Source: Verrucomicrobia subdivision 3 bacterium UBA7542 (GTDB lineage: Bacteria; Verrucomicrobiota; Verrucomicrobiia; Limisphaerales; UBA11358). Taken from it: a DNA stretch of 39,381 nt. The stretch spans positions 1-39,381 of the forward strand of contig DLMG01000345.1 in assembly GCA_002479245.1 (NCBI GenBank), written 5' to 3'. The notes beneath the pieces are model-generated. The model saw only the letters and a program-made list of their open reading frames with translations, was not told the origin of the DNA and searched no databases. A program made the position numbers and the translations under genes. This document shows positions 2,534 through 9,149 of this stretch, piece after piece. How positions within the stretch are numbered: position 1 is the stretch's first letter; every line of letters begins with the position of its first letter.

Positions 2534-5419
2534 ATGAAAGCCACCGCCTTTTTCCGCCTTTCCCTGGTCACCGCGCTTTTCGCAACTCTGACTGCCGGCC
2601 TTTTTGCCGCCGACACCAACTCGGCGCCGCGCGAACGCCGGTTGCTCGACTTCGGCTGGAAATTTCACCTTGGCAACGAGTGGGGCTTCGCCTACGGCCT
2701 GGACAAGGCCGGCACCGGCAGCGGCCCCGCCAGCAAATCGTACAGCGACGCGAGCTGGCGCACGGTGAACCTGCCGCACGACTGGGCGGTCGAACTGCCC
2801 TTCGACCCGGGCGCCAACGACAGCCACGGGTTCAAACCGGTTGGCCCCGGCTTCGCCCGCAACAACGTCGCGTGGTATCGCCGCACGTTTGATCTGCCGG
2901 AGTCCGACGCCGGCAAACGCATCTGGCTGGAGTTCGACGGCGTGTTCCGCGACGCGGAAGTGTTCGTCAACGGCTGGTTCGTCGGCCATCACGAAAGCGG
3001 TTACAGCAGCTTCCGCTACGACATCACCGACCTGGCCAATGTCGGCGGCAAAAACGTCGTCGCGGTGAAGGTGGACGCGTCGCGATTCGAGGGCTGGTTC
3101 TACGAAGGCGCCGGCATTTACCGCCACGTCTGGCTGGTGACCACCGTACCGCTCGCCATCGCCCCGGATGGAATTTTTGTTTACAGCAAATTCAAGAACA
3201 ACGTGCCTGCCGGCCCGGCGGAAATTCACGTTCAAACCCGGTTGTTGAATTCCCAGACCAACGCCGTCCACGCCGTGGTAAAATGCGAAATCATCGCGCC
3301 CGGCGGAAAATCCGTGGTGAAGTTCAAGAAGCCGGAAACTGTAAACGGCGCGGCGCACCGGGAGGTGAACCTCGACACCAAGGTTTCCAGCCCCGTGCTG
3401 TGGTCGCCCGAATCGCCCTCGCTGTACCAGCTCGTCACCACCGTCGAAAGCAACGGAAAGGTTGTTGACCGCCAGGAAACGCCGTTCGGCATCCGCACTG
3501 TCGCGTTCGACGTGGAAAAAGGATTTCTGCTGAACGGCAAGCCGTACGAACTCAAGGGCACGTGCAATCACCAGGACCATGCGGGCGTCGGCGCGGCGCT
3601 GCCGGATGCCCTGCAGTATTTCCGCGTTGCGAAACTCAAGGAAATGGGTTGCAACGCGTATCGCACGTCGCACAACCCGCCCACACCGGAGTTGCTCGAG
3701 GCCTGCGACCGCCTCGGCCTGCTGGTCATGGATGAAAGCCGCCTGCTCGGCAGCGACGAGGAAAATCTGCGCCGCTGGGAAGGCCAGATCCGGCGCGACC
3801 GGAACCATCCCAGCGTCGCCATCTGGTCCATCGCCAACGAGGAATTCCGGGTGCAAGGCACTCCCACCGGCAAACAGGTCGCCCAAACGATGCAGAATTT
3901 GGTCAAGCAGCTCGACCCGACGCGACCGGTGACCTATGCCGCGCCGGTCGGCAATGAATTCGAGGGCATCAATTCCATCATCGAAGTCCGCGGCTGGAAT
4001 TATCATATCGGCACGAACGACATGGACGCCTATCACGCGGCACATCCGGCCCAGCCCAACGTCGGCACGGAACAGGCCAGCACCGTGAGCACCCGCGGCA
4101 TTTACGGAAACGACAAAATCCGCGGTTACGTGAGCGCCTACGACGCCAACGCGCCAGAGTGGGCAAACCGCGCCGAGGCGTGGTGGAGTTTCTTCGCTCC
4201 GCGTCCGTGGCTCTCCGGCGGGTTCATCTGGACGGGCTTCGATTATCGCGGCGAGCCGACGCCCTACGGCTGGCCGTGCATCAACTCGCACTTCGGCGTG
4301 ATGGACACCTGCGGTTTCCCGAAGGACAACTTTTATTATTACCAGTCGTGGTGGACGGACAAACCCGTTTTGCATCTGTTGCCGCATTGGAACTGGCCGG
4401 GCAAGGAAGGCCAGGCCATTGACGTTTGGTGCTACAGCAACTGCCGGGAAGTTGAATTGTTCCTCAACGGCCAAAGCCTCGGTCGGAAAACGATGGAACC
4501 AAATTCGCATCTGGCCTGGATGGTGAAATACGCGCCCGGTGTGCTCTCGGCCAAAGGTTACAACGGCGGCAAAGTTATTGCCGAAACAAAAATTGAAACG
4601 ACCGGCGAACCCGTTGCCGTCCAACTGACCCCCGACCGCTCCACCCTCAACGCCGACGGTGAGGACGTGAGTGTGTTCACGGTTTCCGCGACCGATGCGC
4701 AAGGCCGCGTCGTGCCAGTGGCAACAAACCTGGTTCGTTTTGAATTGAACGGTCCGGGAAAAATCCTGGGCGTGGGCAATGGCGATCCAAGCTGTCACGA
4801 ACCGGACGTGTTTTTATCGCAACCGATCATGCGCACCGTCCCGTTGAATGACGGCTGGCGCTGGAAAAAAACGTCCAACGTGTATGACTCAAAGCTCGCC
4901 GAATTCAAACCGAATTTTGACGATTCCGCCTGGGAGACGGCAAACCCTCAATCCGACAGCGGCCCGCTGGGAGAGCGCGACCAGGCGGTTTTCCGCGTGA
5001 AAATCCAGGTGACGGAGTCGGACCTTGCCGCCCGGGCGGTGGAATTGCGCTGCGGCATGATTGACGAGGATGGCTGGGTTTATGTGAACGGCAAGCAGAT
5101 CGGCGAATCGCATGACTGGCAGTCGCCCGCCGTCTTTGATTTGAAGCCGTTCCTGCATCCGGGCGAAAACACCATCGCCGTGGCGGTGGCGAACTGGAAC
5201 GGAGCGGGCGGACTCAACAAGGGTGTGACGCTGGAATTTCAGGAAAAGTCCATTGCGCCGGCATGGCAACGCAGCGTGTTCAACGGCCTCGCGCAAATCA
5301 TTGTGCAATCCACGAAGGAATCCGGCGCCATCAGACTGACCGCCAGTGCGGACGGTTTGTCGCCGGCCACCGTGTCCGTGCCATCGCAGCCCTGCACGTC
5401 CCGGCCGGCGGCGCCTTAA
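2534..5419 (+). CDS. Secreted GH2 beta-galactosidase-like hydrolase with inserted jelly-roll domain
   Basis: A 961-aa glycoside hydrolase family 2 protein with a signal peptide (residues 1-26), the N-terminal sugar-binding jelly roll (about 35-210), an Ig-like domain, and the TIM barrel (about 330-600). The acid/base glutamate is E436 in IANEE and the likely nucleophile is E513 in VGTEQAS; HNPPTPE and GFIWTGFDYRGE are family-typical. After a DUF4982-like domain, a segment of about 140 residues (roughly 755-900) resembling another galactose-binding jelly roll (GWVYVNGKQIGESHDW) interrupts the C-terminal Ig-like domain: GVGNGDPSCHEPD before it and RSVFNGLAQIIVQST after it are normally adjacent in this family. 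Likely a beta-galactosidase acting on galactan or arabinogalactan side chains, though GH2 also includes glucuronidases and others. It belongs to the + strand hydrolase run. Confidence 0.85.
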   Translation: MKATAFFRLSLVTALFATLTAGLFAADTNSAPRERRLLDFGWKFHLGNEWGFAYGLDKAGTGSGPASKSYSDASWRTVNLPHDWAVELPFDPGANDSHGFKPVGPGFARNNVAWYRRTFDLPESDAGKRIWLEFDGVFRDAEVFVNGWFVGHHESGYSSFRYDITDLANVGGKNVVAVKVDASRFEGWFYEGAGIYRHVWLVTTVPLAIAPDGIFVYSKFKNNVPAGPAEIHVQTRLLNSQTNAVHAVVKCEIIAPGGKSVVKFKKPETVNGAAHREVNLDTKVSSPVLWSPESPSLYQLVTTVESNGKVVDRQETPFGIRTVAFDVEKGFLLNGKPYELKGTCNHQDHAGVGAALPDALQYFRVAKLKEMGCNAYRTSHNPPTPELLEACDRLGLLVMDESRLLGSDEENLRRWEGQIRRDRNHPSVAIWSIANEEFRVQGTPTGKQVAQTMQNLVKQLDPTRPVTYAAPVGNEFEGINSIIEVRGWNYHIGTNDMDAYHAAHPAQPNVGTEQASTVSTRGIYGNDKIRGYVSAYDANAPEWANRAEAWWSFFAPRPWLSGGFIWTGFDYRGEPTPYGWPCINSHFGVMDTCGFPKDNFYYYQSWWTDKPVLHLLPHWNWPGKEGQAIDVWCYSNCREVELFLNGQSLGRKTMEPNSHLAWMVKYAPGVLSAKGYNGGKVIAETKIETTGEPVAVQLTPDRSTLNADGEDVSVFTVSATDAQGRVVPVATNLVRFELNGPGKILGVGNGDPSCHEPDVFLSQPIMRTVPLNDGWRWKKTSNVYDSKLAEFKPNFDDSAWETANPQSDSGPLGERDQAVFRVKIQVTESDLAARAVELRCGMIDEDGWVYVNGKQIGESHDWQSPAVFDLKPFLHPGENTIAVAVANWNGAGGLNKGVTLEFQEKSIAPAWQRSVFNGLAQIIVQSTKESGAIRLTASADGLSPATVSVPSQPCTSRPAAP

Positions 5420-5466: not shown

Positions 5467-5500
5467 ACAAAACTTTGTCGCATATGCGACAAAGTTTTGT
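5467..5500. repeat. Perfect 34-bp palindrome, copy 1
   Basis: The arm ACAAAACTTTGTCGCAT is followed directly by its exact reverse complement, with no loop. Each arm contains the imperfect palindrome ACAAAACTTTGT. The element lies 47 bases after the GH2 stop codon and ends on the first base of the PaaX-type gene's TGA (5500-5502, minus strand). An identical copy lies at the other end of the same gene (6328-6361). It has no T-run, so it is not a standard intrinsic terminator. It may be a regulator-binding site or one boundary of a gene cassette. Confidence 0.95.
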
Positions 5501-6291
5501 CATGACGTGGATGGATTAAAGGTGCGCAATTGTCGTCCGGCTTCCCGGAGCACCTTGATCCGCCGGCGCCACACCTGTTGCCCCAAGTAACCGGGCGGCA
5601 GGATTCGTTCCGGCAGGAGCGGATCACATGTCACCGCGTCCAGCCACGCTTCGCGCTCCGCTGCTGCCCAACACCGTAACGCCTTGGCCGCCGCTTCGTT
5701 TCCAAGCGCCCCGCCCGGCCGCTCGCCAAGGATTTTCAAATGCCGGGCATAACGGTGATTGATTTGTTCGAAGTCCCAGGCCCCCGCGACGATTTCAGCG
5801 TCGGATTCCCCCGCGCACGGTCGCGCCTCCAACAGGATGAGTGATTCCACATTGATTTTACCGCCTACGAGGACACGTTTTTCTTCCTCCAGCGAATCAG
5901 GTGTAATCCAGACGCTGTTTTGCAAATAGCCGAAGCCTTTATCGTGGAGATAGCGTCGTAATTGTGCGCGCTGTGAATTTTGTGTGGTTGGAACATCGAA
6001 CAGCACGAGCCGCCAGCGACCGTCCCATTCGCGCGCCCATCCAGCCTGTGGGTCACGTCCGCCCATCGCGTGCAGGCGCCCCTGCCAGGTAAGCCGATAC
6101 GTACGGTCATCAAGCGCAGCAGGATCACGCTCGACCAGTTGCTGCGTCTCCAGCGTGGCCACCTGCCGCAGCAGGTTGTTGCGATAGGCCCAACTCTCGT
6201 AGGAGTCCGTGAGGTTGCGGAACGTGGGCCGGGCCAACATTTCGACGGACCAGAGGAGGAAATTTAGAAATTCTTCCGTTTGAGGTTTCAT
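5500..6291 (-). CDS. PaaX-family transcriptional regulator
   Basis: A 263-aa protein with the three-part PaaX layout. It has an N-terminal winged helix (about 1-75), a central Cas2-like ferredoxin-fold domain (about 90-180, with WDGRWRLVLFDVP and GFGYLQNSVWITP) and a C-terminal domain (WDFEQIN...Y, then DPLLPERILPPGYLGQ). E. coli PaaX represses phenylacetate catabolism in response to phenylacetyl-CoA; no such genes are present here, so the ligand is unknown. The start at 6291 (MKPQTEEFLNF) is chosen because the open frame further upstream translates through the palindrome and adds a non-homologous tail. The gene is inverted in the middle of an otherwise + strand hydrolase series. Identical 34-bp palindromes lie 37 bases upstream of its start and directly on its stop codon. 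The upstream copy suggests autoregulation and control of the divergent GH3 gene (inference). Confidence 0.85.
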   Translation of the reverse strand: MKPQTEEFLNFLLWSVEMLARPTFRNLTDSYESWAYRNNLLRQVATLETQQLVERDPAALDDRTYRLTWQGRLHAMGGRDPQAGWAREWDGRWRLVLFDVPTTQNSQRAQLRRYLHDKGFGYLQNSVWITPDSLEEEKRVLVGGKINVESLILLEARPCAGESDAEIVAGAWDFEQINHRYARHLKILGERPGGALGNEAAAKALRCWAAAEREAWLDAVTCDPLLPERILPPGYLGQQVWRRRIKVLREAGRQLRTFNPSTS

Positions 6292-6327
6292 GGCGGGATA
6301 TTGGCAAGAGCAGGCAAGTAATGCCAT

Positions 6328-6361
6328 ACAAAACTTTGTCGCATATGCGACAAAGTTTTGT
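6328..6361. promoter_or_regulatory. Perfect 34-bp palindrome, copy 2 (candidate operator)
   Basis: Identical in all 34 bases to the copy at 5467-5500. It lies in the 140-base divergent region between the PaaX-type gene (start 6291) and the GH3 gene (start 6432). It extends outward by a further GCCAT/ATGGC pairing with a single bulged base. Its position is that of an operator controlling both genes, and PaaX family members bind palindromic operators. The pairing with the distal copy would also allow DNA looping. That PaaX is the binder is an inference. Confidence 0.65.
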
Positions 6362-6431
6362 AATGGCTGACACACCATCGTATGACAAAAACATGTTGGC
6401 GCGCATCATTCCTGCCGTGTAATTTGGGCTC

Positions 6432-9149
6432 ATGCAATGGACGATTCTTTGCGCGCTGGCAGGTTTCACCGTCTGCCTTTCAACCAGCATCGCCTTCGCC
6501 GACGAGGAAAACTGTGTGGCCTGCGACCGGAAGGTCCTGGTCAGCGGCCAGTTCGAACACGGCCGGGGACATGAAAGTCTGGCAATTACCGGCGCACCGA
6601 AACGCGGCGAGGAAGCGTTCCGCGAGGAAATTTACGGAACCAATTTCACCGTGTCCGTCCCCAATCTGCCGGCGGGCAAATACACTGTCCTCGTCGGGCT
6701 TGTAGAAATCGTTTTCACCAACGCCGGCCAGCGCGTGTTCGACATCACCTGCGGCAGCCAGACGCTTGCGCACAACCTCGACGTTTTCACCGCCGCCGGC
6801 GGCGCGGGCCGGGTCCTGCTGCTGACCAACCGGATTGATTTTCCCGGGGATGCCGCGCACGGGCCATTCACGCTCACCTTCACCGGGCACACCAACGCGG
6901 CCAAGCTGAACACGTTCGAACTTAAGGATGCCTCCGGCCTGTCCCTCATTTCGATGTCGGCGGCGGATTTGATCAACGCTGAAGACGCCGCCGCGTTGCA
7001 ACCGCCCGTCGTCACCGGACCGGAAATCTGGAAGGACGCCGCGCAGCCTGTCGCCGCGCGCGTGGAGGACCTGGTGCGCCGCTTGTCGCTTGCCGAAAAA
7101 GTGCAGCAGATGCGGAACACGGCCCCGGCCATTCCGCGGCTGGTCATTCCCGCCTACGATTATTGGAATGAATGCCTTCACGGCGTCGCGCGGGCCGGCG
7201 TCGCCACGGTTTTCCCCCAGGCCATCGGCATGGCCGCCACGTGGGACACCCCGCTCCTGCGTGAAACCGCCGGGGTCATCGCCACCGAAGCCCGCGCCAA
7301 GCACAATGACTACGTTGCCAGACACAACGGCGACAGCGCGCGCTATTACGGTCTCACGTTCTGGACGCCAAACATCAATCTCTTCCGCGACCCACGCTGG
7401 GGCCGCGGCCAGGAAACCTACGGCGAAGACCCGTTTCTCACCGCCCGGCTCGGTGTGGCGTTCATTCGCGGGCTGCAGGGCGACGATCCGAAATACGTGA
7501 AGGCCATGGCCGGCGCGAAACATTTTGCCGTCCACAGCGGGCCGGAACCGGAACGCCACCGTTTTGACGCGACGCCGTCCGAATGCGATTTTTACGAGAC
7601 GTATCTGCCGCAATTCGAGGCCGCTGTCCGCGAGGGCCACGTCGGCGCGGTGATGGGCGCCTACAATTCCGTCTATGGCCGGCCGGCCTGCGCGAACCCG
7701 TTGCTGCTCACGGAACTTCTGCGGAAACAGTGGGGTTTTGACGGCCATGTCGTTTCCGATTGCGGTGCGATTTATGACATCTATGCGAATCATAAATTCA
7801 CGGCCACGCCAGCGGAGGCCGCAGCCGCGGCGGTCAAGGCCGGTGACGACCTTTGCTGCGGCAGGGATTACAACTCGCTGGTGCGCGCAGTTAAAAAGGG
7901 TTTGATTTCGGAAGCGGAAATCAACACTGCGGTCGGTCGCGTGCTGGAAGCGCGGTTCCGGCTGGGACTGTTTGACCCGCCGGCCATGGTGCCGTACGCG
8001 CGAATTCCCATCACGCAAAACGACACACCCGCCCACGAGGCGCTGGCGCTGAAGATGGCGCGCGAATCCATCGTGCTCCTGAAAAATGACCGCCTGCTGC
8101 CACTCGACCGCACGAAAATCAAACGCATTGCTGTCATCGGCGCCAACGCGGATTCCGTGGTGGTGCTGCTCGGCAATTACAACGGCACCCCGGCCCGGCC
8201 GGTGACCATTCTCGACGGCATCAAAAGTGTCGCCGGCACGAACGTCGAGGTGGTTTACGAACCGGCTTGTCCGCTGGCGTTGAGCCGGGACGCGATGGAC
8301 AAGCCCGACACCAAGTTATGGACCAAGGCCATCGCCGCCGCGTGGATGTCGGACGTGATTATTTACGTCGGCGGCATCAGTTCCCAGCTCGAAGGCGAGG
8401 AAATGAAGGTGGACTACGACGGCTTCAGCGGCGGCGACCGCACGGAGATTGAACTGCCGGCGGTGCAAAACGAACTGCTCGAGGCGTTGCAGGCCATCGG
8501 CAAGCCCGTCGTGTTCGTCAATTGCAGCGGCAGCGCCATCGCCATGCCGGGAGCCACCAACCTCACGGCGATTTTGCAGGCGTGGTATCCGGGCGAACAA
8601 GGCGGACGCGCCGTGGCCGACGTGCTGTTCGGCGATGTGAATCCCGCCGGACGTTTGCCGGTCACTTTTTACCGCGCCACCGCCGACCTGCCGGCCTTTG
8701 ACAATTATTCGATGTCCAACCGCACCTACCGTTATTTCAACGGCCGGCCGGACTTCGCCTTTGGCCACGGTTTAAGTTACACCAAATTCGATTACAACAG
8801 CCCGAAGCTCAACGGGACAAATTTCACGGCGAACGACATGATCAAACTCACGTTTTCGCTGCTGAACGCCGGCGCGTGGGACGGCGATGAGGTGGCGCAG
8901 GTTTATTTCCGGCACGTGAATTCTGCCCAATCCCAGCCCCGGCTCGCGTTGTGCGGCTTTGTGCGGATTCATTTGCAGGCCAACCAGGGGGGCAGAATCA
9001 CCATGGACATTCCGGCGGAACAGTTCCGCAGTTGGGACCCGGCCAAAAAGCAATACACCGTCGAGCCTGGCGACTATGTATTGCTTGTTGGCGCAGCGTC
9101 CGATGACATCCGCCTGCGCCTGCCGCTGAAAATCACCGCCGCAAAATGA
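6432..9149 (+). CDS. Secreted GH3 beta-glycosidase (xylosidase/arabinofuranosidase type) with malectin-like N-domain
   Basis: A 905-aa exported enzyme. A signal peptide (1-23) is followed by a malectin/CBM57-like beta-sandwich (about 30-165, GTNFTVSVPNLPAGKYTV), which may bind carbohydrate. The GH3 barrel spans about 185-520 (DYWNECLHGVARAG, WTPNINLFRDPRWGRGQETYGEDP, KHFAVHSGPE). The catalytic nucleophile is D443 in VVSDCGAIYD. Then come the (alpha/beta)6 sandwich (LLKNDRLLPL, SQLEGEE) and an Fn3-like domain at the C-terminus. The DPRWGRGQETYGEDP block and overall layout are those of beta-xylosidases or alpha-L-arabinofuranosidases rather than beta-glucosidases. A CVAC motif close to the mature N-terminus is unusual. 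It is transcribed divergently from the PaaX-type gene, with a 34-bp palindrome 70 bases before its ATG. Two GH95 genes follow. Confidence 0.88.
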   Translation: MQWTILCALAGFTVCLSTSIAFADEENCVACDRKVLVSGQFEHGRGHESLAITGAPKRGEEAFREEIYGTNFTVSVPNLPAGKYTVLVGLVEIVFTNAGQRVFDITCGSQTLAHNLDVFTAAGGAGRVLLLTNRIDFPGDAAHGPFTLTFTGHTNAAKLNTFELKDASGLSLISMSAADLINAEDAAALQPPVVTGPEIWKDAAQPVAARVEDLVRRLSLAEKVQQMRNTAPAIPRLVIPAYDYWNECLHGVARAGVATVFPQAIGMAATWDTPLLRETAGVIATEARAKHNDYVARHNGDSARYYGLTFWTPNINLFRDPRWGRGQETYGEDPFLTARLGVAFIRGLQGDDPKYVKAMAGAKHFAVHSGPEPERHRFDATPSECDFYETYLPQFEAAVREGHVGAVMGAYNSVYGRPACANPLLLTELLRKQWGFDGHVVSDCGAIYDIYANHKFTATPAEAAAAAVKAGDDLCCGRDYNSLVRAVKKGLISEAEINTAVGRVLEARFRLGLFDPPAMVPYARIPITQNDTPAHEALALKMARESIVLLKNDRLLPLDRTKIKRIAVIGANADSVVVLLGNYNGTPARPVTILDGIKSVAGTNVEVVYEPACPLALSRDAMDKPDTKLWTKAIAAAWMSDVIIYVGGISSQLEGEEMKVDYDGFSGGDRTEIELPAVQNELLEALQAIGKPVVFVNCSGSAIAMPGATNLTAILQAWYPGEQGGRAVADVLFGDVNPAGRLPVTFYRATADLPAFDNYSMSNRTYRYFNGRPDFAFGHGLSYTKFDYNSPKLNGTNFTANDMIKLTFSLLNAGAWDGDEVAQVYFRHVNSAQSQPRLALCGFVRIHLQANQGGRITMDIPAEQFRSWDPAKKQYTVEPGDYVLLVGAASDDIRLRLPLKITAAK

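What the first reader, a model, noticed from the sequence alone, without database searches (positions are those of the whole stretch)
5467..6361. PaaX-type regulator gene bracketed by two identical perfect 34-bp palindromes
The same loop-free 34-base palindrome (arm ACAAAACTTTGTCGCAT) occurs exactly once at each end of the regulator gene: one copy ends on its stop codon and the other sits 37 bases before its start. Identity in all 34 bases at both ends is far beyond chance. Two readings are possible: a paired operator allowing a DNA loop that encloses the gene, or a minimal mobile or rearranging cassette that carries a regulator and its own operators. The gene is inverted within a co-directional hydrolase run, which supports the cassette reading.
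Basis: partly seen in the sequence, partly recalled or inferred. Interest (0 to 1): 0.75.

Follow-up and report, generated by a model that had tools for sequence, protein, structure and literature searches.

The report
Palindrome-bounded mobile Cas2-like gene cassette
A small bacterial gene related to the CRISPR protein Cas2 sits between two copies of a long mirror-image DNA sequence, and comparison with relatives suggests that gene and palindromes form a mobile unit whose palindromes are also scattered around the genome, resembling known REP repeats but with an unrelated protein.

Summary
The cassette reading gains support; the paired-operator reading loses. (1) Many relatives in the class are bracketed by long palindromes that differ between loci but match across one gene: flank similarity >=18 in 28 of 45 loci versus 33 of 1980 cross-locus pairs. 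(2) In same-genus G023 the cassette lies between gyrase/topoisomerase-type B and A genes; its homology to the window runs palindrome to palindrome only. (3) Same-genus G329 has the GH2-GH3 junction with one palindrome and no gene. (4) Palindromes are dispersed: 19 sister-type and two extra window-type copies here; 74 in G309, with 22 doublets of 75-77 bp period in 35 loci. This resembles REPIN/RAYT systems, but the gene is Cas2-fold and PaaX-like, not a Y1 transposase. That the protein recognises or moves the palindromes is inferred. No target duplication was seen; gain versus loss in G329 is unresolved.

The parts
5467..5500 (.). Palindrome copy 1 (34 bp, perfect), 3' end of the cassette; overlaps the stop codon by one base
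6328..6361 (.). Palindrome copy 2 (34 bp, perfect; 36 bp if 6327-6362), 5' end of the cassette, 36 bases before the start codon
5500..6291 (-). PaaX-like, Cas2-fold gene (263 aa): winged-helix-like N-terminus, PaaX_M Cas2-like core with D99, R108, Q124, S126, PaaX_C-like end
   Evidence: Pfam; alignment; model; fold search; N-terminus by weak matches to MarR-type chains
5467..6361 (-). Inferred mobile unit (palindrome-gene-palindrome); DNA homology to the copy in G023 covers 5468-6354 only
2534..5419 (+). GH2 glycoside hydrolase, left neighbour; part of the junction that holds one palindrome and no gene in G329
6432..9149 (+). GH3 glycoside hydrolase, right neighbour

Best explanation
5467-6361 is a single-gene mobile cassette bounded by two copies of one palindrome. 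The same palindrome family is spread through the genome as solo, REP-like copies, and in a related genome as REPIN-like doublets. Shown by sequence: bracketing in many relatives, different sites, homology ending at the palindromes, a junction with one palindrome and no gene, dispersed copies. Inferred: the encoded Cas2-fold, winged-helix protein recognises its own palindrome (as double-stranded dyad or extruded hairpin) and, using a Cas2-type metal site around D99, nicks or joins at it, thereby spreading palindrome-bounded DNA including its own gene. It would thus work like a RAYT/REPIN pair with an unrelated protein. Binding at the upstream copy may also autoregulate the gene.
For: Bracketing: of 45 loci (window included) with one long match and full flanks, palindrome score >=8 upstream in 34, downstream in 27, both in 23, versus 2 of 173 stretches elsewhere in the same loci and 6 of 450 shuffled flanks; flank similarity >=18 in 28 of 45 versus 33 of 1980 cross-locus pairs (Fisher p 1.6e-34). 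The second gene of this genome (C160) has its own different pair. Different site: G023 cassette between DNA_gyraseB/Toprim and DNA_topoisoIV genes, homology to the whole window limited to 5468-6354. One-palindrome junction without gene: G329. G064: two contigs share 141 identical bases ending at the outer palindrome edge, then unrelated flanks. Dispersal; the ~110-bp doublet of G309 recurs at 72-83% identity with ends near the outer palindrome edges. In this genome solo copies are rarely divergent (7 convergent, 1 divergent versus 3 and 10 background, p 0.0075). D99, R108, Q124, S126 are invariant in 43 of 43 aligned relatives; E. coli PaaX shows E, L, A, S there (read by eye; E stands next to a gap).
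Against: No target-site duplication was noticed (no dedicated search was made). Polarity in G329 is unresolved: about 40 bases left of its palindrome align poorly to both G000 and G031. Much of the dispersal is not recent: 6 of 19 sister-type sites in this genome have a palindrome at the same place in G031 or G329. G329 keeps 5 palindromes with no gene match, and G211, G416, G420 carry 1-2 related palindromes and are not among the 41 genomes with a protein match. 17 of 45 loci do not reach flank similarity 18. Two pairs of loci within one genus each share an upstream neighbour (L036/L037, L027/L030), so some copies stay put. In G309 the gene context of solo copies does not differ clearly from background (16 convergent, 22 tandem, 2 divergent versus 15, 25, 5). 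The two copies are not consistently inverted (4 inverted, 3 direct, 15 undecided). Compensatory two-arm changes were a minority (6 versus 27 single-arm). The Cas2-type residues also occur in a fixed-locus clade, so they do not mark mobility. No biochemical evidence that the protein binds or cuts anything.
Confidence: 0.6

Rival explanations
1. Ordinary PaaX-type autorepressor with two operators, possibly bridged by a DNA loop, and the solo palindromes as its regulon.
For: PaaX_M/PaaX_C domains and best fold match E. coli PaaX; the upstream copy lies 36 bases before the start; protein-specific dyads would also explain matching pairs; in a fixed-locus clade 4 of 5 loci have an upstream palindrome and none a downstream one, the fifth having too little upstream sequence; 10 of 18 intergenic solo copies of this genome are tandem and could lie in promoter regions.
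Against: 7 of 18 intergenic solo copies lie between convergent genes; the downstream copy sits at the gene's end; arms of up to 24 bp exceed usual operators (general knowledge; for the arms); the unit is found at different sites with homology ending at the palindromes; palindromes persist without a detected gene in G329; doublets of fixed 75-77 bp period in G309.
Confidence: 0.2
2. The palindromes are REPs spread in trans by a Y1 tyrosine transposase encoded elsewhere; the PaaX-like gene became trapped between two copies and moves by host recombination.
For: 5 of 6 genomes searched carry Y1_Tnp matches, 12 of the 43 matches in G000; 1 of 30 Y1 loci scanned has a related palindrome within 4 mismatches (L263 of G258). 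The verrucomicrobium O. terrae is reported rich in GTAG repeats (PMC3733652, passages).
Against: G064 has no Y1_Tnp match yet has the cassette ends and palindromes; 29 of 30 Y1 loci scanned (of 43 matches) lack the four palindrome types tested; chance trapping does not explain why relatives carry differing pairs that match across the gene.
Confidence: 0.12
3. The palindromes are bidirectional terminators or nucleoid-organising repeats under selection, unrelated to the gene.
For: Perfect hairpins; 7 of 18 intergenic solo copies between convergent genes.
Against: A terminator 36 bases upstream of the start codon makes little sense; the sister-type palindrome occurs in 3 of 49 genus genomes, two of which hold the gene; palindromes differ from locus to locus while matching across one gene.
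Confidence: 0.05

Closest known systems
REPIN / RAYT (REPtron) systems
   Same: One gene flanked by palindromes that are also dispersed, mostly between genes; doublets of regular period (75-77 bp, some 119-121 bp in G309; the two commonest spacings in P. fluorescens SBW25 were 71 and 110 bp, PMC3116915 passages).
   Different: The bracketed gene is not a Y1/HUH tyrosine transposase but Cas2-fold/PaaX-like; no GTAG beside the window palindromes; doublets seen in G309, not in this genome.
PaaX phenylacetate repressor (E. coli, PDB 8a39)
   Same: Best fold match and homologous over most of the length.
   Different: Below the PaaX equivalog cut-off; the E. coli protein lacks D99, R108 and Q124; best palindrome in 130 bases upstream of E. 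coli paaX scores 4.5 (downstream not examined, paaY overlaps).
Cas2 of CRISPR-Cas
   Same: Cas2-like core with Asp at the end of its first strand (93-99) and an L-Q-x-S segment; Cas2 chains among the Foldseek matches, at E 0.02 and above.
   Different: Cas2 model just below its cut-off (22.4 versus 24.5); has additional N- and C-terminal domains; CRISPR arrays and cas1 were not looked for.

Membership tests
PaaX repressor (TIGR02277 equivalog) | Score above the equivalog cut-off | tested here: not met
   59.6 versus 264.55 bits
PaaX repressor (TIGR02277 equivalog) | PaaX_M central domain | tested here: met
   71.2 bits, cut-off 24; 43 of 43 relatives in A1
PaaX repressor (TIGR02277 equivalog) | PaaX_C domain | tested here: inconclusive
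   Window protein 19.8 bits, cut-off 22; 42 of 43 members of A1 at E<=0.01
PaaX repressor (TIGR02277 equivalog) | Next to phenylacetate degradation genes | tested here: not met
   The five neighbours scanned are GH127, GH2, GH3, GH95, GH95
REPIN/RAYT | Bracketed gene encodes a Y1/HUH tyrosine transposase | tested here: not met
   Only PaaX_M and weak PaaX_C in the window protein
REPIN/RAYT | Palindromes flank the gene and are dispersed | tested here: met
REPIN/RAYT | REP doublets of regular period | tested here: inconclusive
   Met in G309: 22 pairs at 75-77 bp among 35 loci chosen around its palindromes; no doublet seen among the copies of this genome
REPIN/RAYT | Conserved GTAG-type tetranucleotide 5' of the palindrome | tested here: not met
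   No GTAG beside either window copy
REPIN/RAYT | Protein cleaves its own palindrome | not testable with these tools
   Needs biochemistry
Cas2 | Score above the Cas2 equivalog cut-off | tested here: not met
   22.4 versus 24.5 bits
Cas2 | Asp at the end of the first strand of the ferredoxin-like core (position recalled) | tested here: met
   D99 ends strand 93-99 in the model; 43 of 43

The most novel reading that the evidence does not exclude
A Cas2-fold protein without Cas1 and without a Y1/HUH transposase is a self-sufficient mobilising enzyme of a new class of minimal transposable element: it recognises perfect palindromes, moves palindrome-bounded DNA (its own gene or ~110-bp doublets), and co-evolves with its palindrome so that each lineage has a private palindrome type. 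This would give Cas2-type proteins a mobile-element role independent of Cas1.
Probability: 0.4. Interest if true: 0.93.

Novelty: new variant of a known kind. Interest (0 to 1): 0.78.

Why it matters
If the protein drives dispersal, it is a second, unrelated solution to the REPIN/RAYT way of life and, as far as the searches below show, the first described mobile element whose only gene is Cas2-like, which bears on where Cas2 came from. Even without catalysis it would change how many metagenome proteins now named as phenylacetate regulators are read (1719 relatives at E<=0.001, 120 listed). Of 8 paper searches, the two aimed most directly returned none: 'PaaX' with 'Cas2' as whole words, 0 papers; at least two of 'PaaX-like', 'PaaX family', 'Verrucomicrobi', 0 papers. 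The library holds no bioRxiv preprints and few subscription papers, so prior description elsewhere is not excluded.

Tried and rejected
Regulon reading of solo palindromes: tested by gene context (heuristic gene calls of my own, small background) and disfavoured in this genome; G309 showed no clear difference from a background drawn from the same loci. CRISPR-like array reading of the 76-bp doublets: dropped because spacers are similar to each other. Cas2-type residues as a mark of mobility: rejected, since the fixed-locus clade L063-L067 keeps them. Symmetric arm changes as general proof of hairpin selection: weak (6 two-arm versus 27 one-arm), although the window pair and the G031 pair differ symmetrically (CGCATATGCG versus CCCACGTGGG). 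Orientation of the two copies: undecided. Empty site for a private solo copy: G031 lacks the palindrome at the L216 site, but the intergenic sequence (93 versus 191 bases) aligns poorly. A relative of G309 for empty-site tests: the family search covered G309 alone. Phages: no match; viral contigs: no relative by the peptide-pattern scan; plasmids: 3 distant matches. Synteny: 26 of 1081 locus pairs share a similar neighbour ORF; 10 are within the fixed-locus clade L063-L067, 5 link L051 to it, 11 are others. PMC4424350 (passages) did not help.

Definition used: 'intact' means one tblastn piece of more than 150 residues, not absence of stops; L020 and L046 carry an in-frame stop and stay in the 45. 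Of 59 loci with a hit, 47 were 'intact' and 45 of these had full flanks; L063 and L031 were dropped for short flanks. Four fixed-locus loci (L064-L067) are among the 45. The G031 and G023 copies came later and are not counted.

Full report
Observation. The two 34-bp sequences at 5467-5500 and 6328-6361 are identical perfect palindromes. They bracket a minus-strand gene (5500-6291, 263 aa) with a PaaX_M Cas2-like domain within a plus-strand run of GH127, GH2, GH3 and two GH95 genes. Copy 1 overlaps the stop codon by one base; 36 bases separate copy 2 from the start codon.

Bracketing occurs in many relatives. A search of 384 class genomes found relatives of the protein in 41 (own genome included), sometimes several per genome and some broken. 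Long palindromes flank many of these genes; their sequence changes from locus to locus but is alike on both sides of one gene. Among 45 loci with usable flanks (window included), 34 have a palindrome upstream, 27 downstream and 23 on both sides at score >=8, against 2 of 173 stretches elsewhere and 6 of 450 shuffles; flank-to-flank similarity reached 18 in 28 of 45, against 33 of 1980 cross-locus pairs (Fisher test). The 45 include paralogues and are not independent. The second PaaX-like gene of this genome (contig C160) has its own, different pair. By contrast five relatives of one genus (L063-L067) keep the same downstream neighbour (80-86% identity where L063 is compared with the other four); four have an upstream palindrome at score >=8, the fifth (L063) has only 23 bases upstream, and none has a downstream one. 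They look like ordinary fixed genes.

The unit is found at different sites. Among 49 same-genus genomes the protein was found in G000 (two genes), G031, G023, G064 (two C-terminal pieces at contig ends) and, weakly, G234. G031 has it at the window's own site between GH2 and GH3 (86% identity). G023 has it elsewhere: between a gene with DNA_gyraseB and Toprim domains and one with a DNA_topoisoIV domain. BLASTN of the 3.8-kb G023 locus against the whole window gives one match, window 5468-6354, i.e. palindrome to palindrome. In G064 two contigs share 141 identical bases (gene end plus palindrome), after which the flanks are unrelated; two right flanks mean at least two copies of that end.

A site without the gene. 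G329 (flanks 85% and 89% identical) has GH2 and GH3 adjacent with one palindrome between them and no gene match in the genome (94% complete). Its right flank is 95-97% identical to the window's outer right flank, while about 40 bases to the left align poorly to both G000 and G031, so gain and loss cannot be told apart. In G016, more distant, the matches to the two genes are 93 bases apart and no palindrome shows in the alignment or the pattern search. Divergence is mosaic across the site: Ks between G000 and G031 is 0.79 for the GH2 part, 0.31 for the gene and 0.15 for the first 326 GH3 codons; between G000 and G329 it is 0.50 and 0.35 for the GH2 and GH3 parts. This suggests past recombination around the site.

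Palindromes are dispersed. This genome has four window-type palindromes (three exact, one with two mismatches) and 19 of a sister type whose core reads CCCACGTGGG in place of CGCATATGCG. In 49 genus genomes the sister type occurs only in G000 (19), G031 (8) and G329 (5); the G023 and G064 cassettes have types of their own. Both palindromes of the G031 cassette are of the sister type and both window copies are of the other type, so both ends differ together and symmetrically. Six of the 19 sites in this genome have a palindrome at the same place in G031 or G329. Four copies lie in a longer dispersed repeat; the one on C236 has the window-type core while its three relatives (L201, L213, L214) have the sister core, as if the core had been replaced. 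In the wider class one related palindrome consensus, at up to 3 mismatches, occurs in 10 of 384 genomes: 7 of these gave a protein match (G064, G248, G258, G309, G314, G075, G086) and 3 did not (G211, G416, G420), with 74 copies in G309, 21 in G258 and 1-6 in the others. Palindrome types of other relatives were not counted genome-wide. In G309, 35 loci examined hold 22 pairs spaced 75-77 bp, and some spaced 119-121 bp. The ~110-bp doublet is a repeat family of 72-83% identity whose ends lie near the outer palindrome edges.

Not promoter operators in general. With gene calls made by a simple codon model, 18 intergenic solo copies of this genome were placed: 7 between convergent genes, 10 tandem, 1 divergent, against 3, 19 and 10 in background gaps (convergent versus divergent p 0.0075). 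Two further copies fell in predicted coding and one at a contig edge. The background is small and the gene calls are mine. G031 gave 2 convergent, 2 tandem, 1 coding, 1 edge; G329 1 convergent, 4 tandem; G309 16 convergent, 22 tandem, 2 divergent, 1 coding, 2 edge, against 15, 25 and 5 (convergent, tandem, divergent) in a background drawn from the same loci, so no clear difference there.

The protein. The model (mean pLDDT 83.5) matches E. coli PaaX (8a39) and M. tuberculosis Rv0674 (3kfw) best; Cas2 chains follow at E 0.02 and above. D99 at the end of the first core strand, R108, Q124 and S126 are invariant in 43 of 43 relatives. The aligned E. coli PaaX positions are E (next to a gap), L, A and S; Rv0674 has T, R, R and G (read by eye). 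This is compatible with a Cas2-type metal site (position recalled from general knowledge). The fixed-locus clade keeps the same residues, so they mark the protein branch, not mobility.

Comparison with known systems. REPINs are REP doublets thought to be mobilised by RAYTs; a REP was found in the DNA flanking each RAYT examined, and the commonest spacings in SBW25 were 71 and 110 bp (PMC3116915: abstract and passages). TnpA-REP proteins act on the palindrome and a GTAG tag to varying degrees (PMC8266576, passages). GTAG repeats are reported abundant in O. terrae, a verrucomicrobium (PMC3733652, passages). The present system matches in architecture but fails two features: the Y1/HUH transposase and the GTAG tag. 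Y1_Tnp matches exist in 5 of 6 genomes searched, so a trans-acting Y1 transposase remains a rival, but G064 has none and 1 of 30 Y1 loci scanned (of 43 matches) had a related palindrome.

Verdict. Bracketing, dispersal and homology ending at the palindromes are shown by sequence. Mobility of the unit is the best explanation of the site differences. That the Cas2-like protein is the mobilising factor is inferred from its place between its own palindromes and is untested.

Noticed in passing
L072 (G000:C160) 7395-8183: Second PaaX-like gene of the same genome (about 40% identical), bracketed by a different palindrome (ACAATTAATGAAATAGCTATTTCATTAATTGT downstream, an imperfect relative upstream).
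   Followed up: partly
L001 (G000:C236) 1496-2953: A type I restriction HsdR-like reading frame (HSDR_N, ResIII) stops about 65 bases from a window-type solo palindrome that lies in a dispersed repeat; the repeat may have disrupted the gene.
   Followed up: partly
L004 (G000:C397) 1499-1701: A variant solo palindrome (core CGTAAATGCG) lies about 175 bases upstream of an HTH_17 + PTS_EIIA_2 gene.
   Followed up: no
L063-L067: A genus (f68/g112) with a PaaX-like gene beside one conserved neighbour; four of five have an upstream palindrome, the fifth lacks enough upstream sequence, and none has a downstream one: a natural contrast to the bracketed type.
   Followed up: partly
window 4798-5247: In the GH2 gene, identity to G031 falls to 62-66% while the stretches on either side are at 81-87%, suggesting recombination or replacement of a GH2 segment.
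   Followed up: no
G309, e.g. L113, L128, L136, L137: A second doublet class with 119-121 bp period next to the 76-bp class.
   Followed up: partly
L192 (G064:C54) near 530-600: A solo palindrome followed by sequence resembling the 3' end of the G064 cassette, possibly a decayed copy.
   Followed up: no
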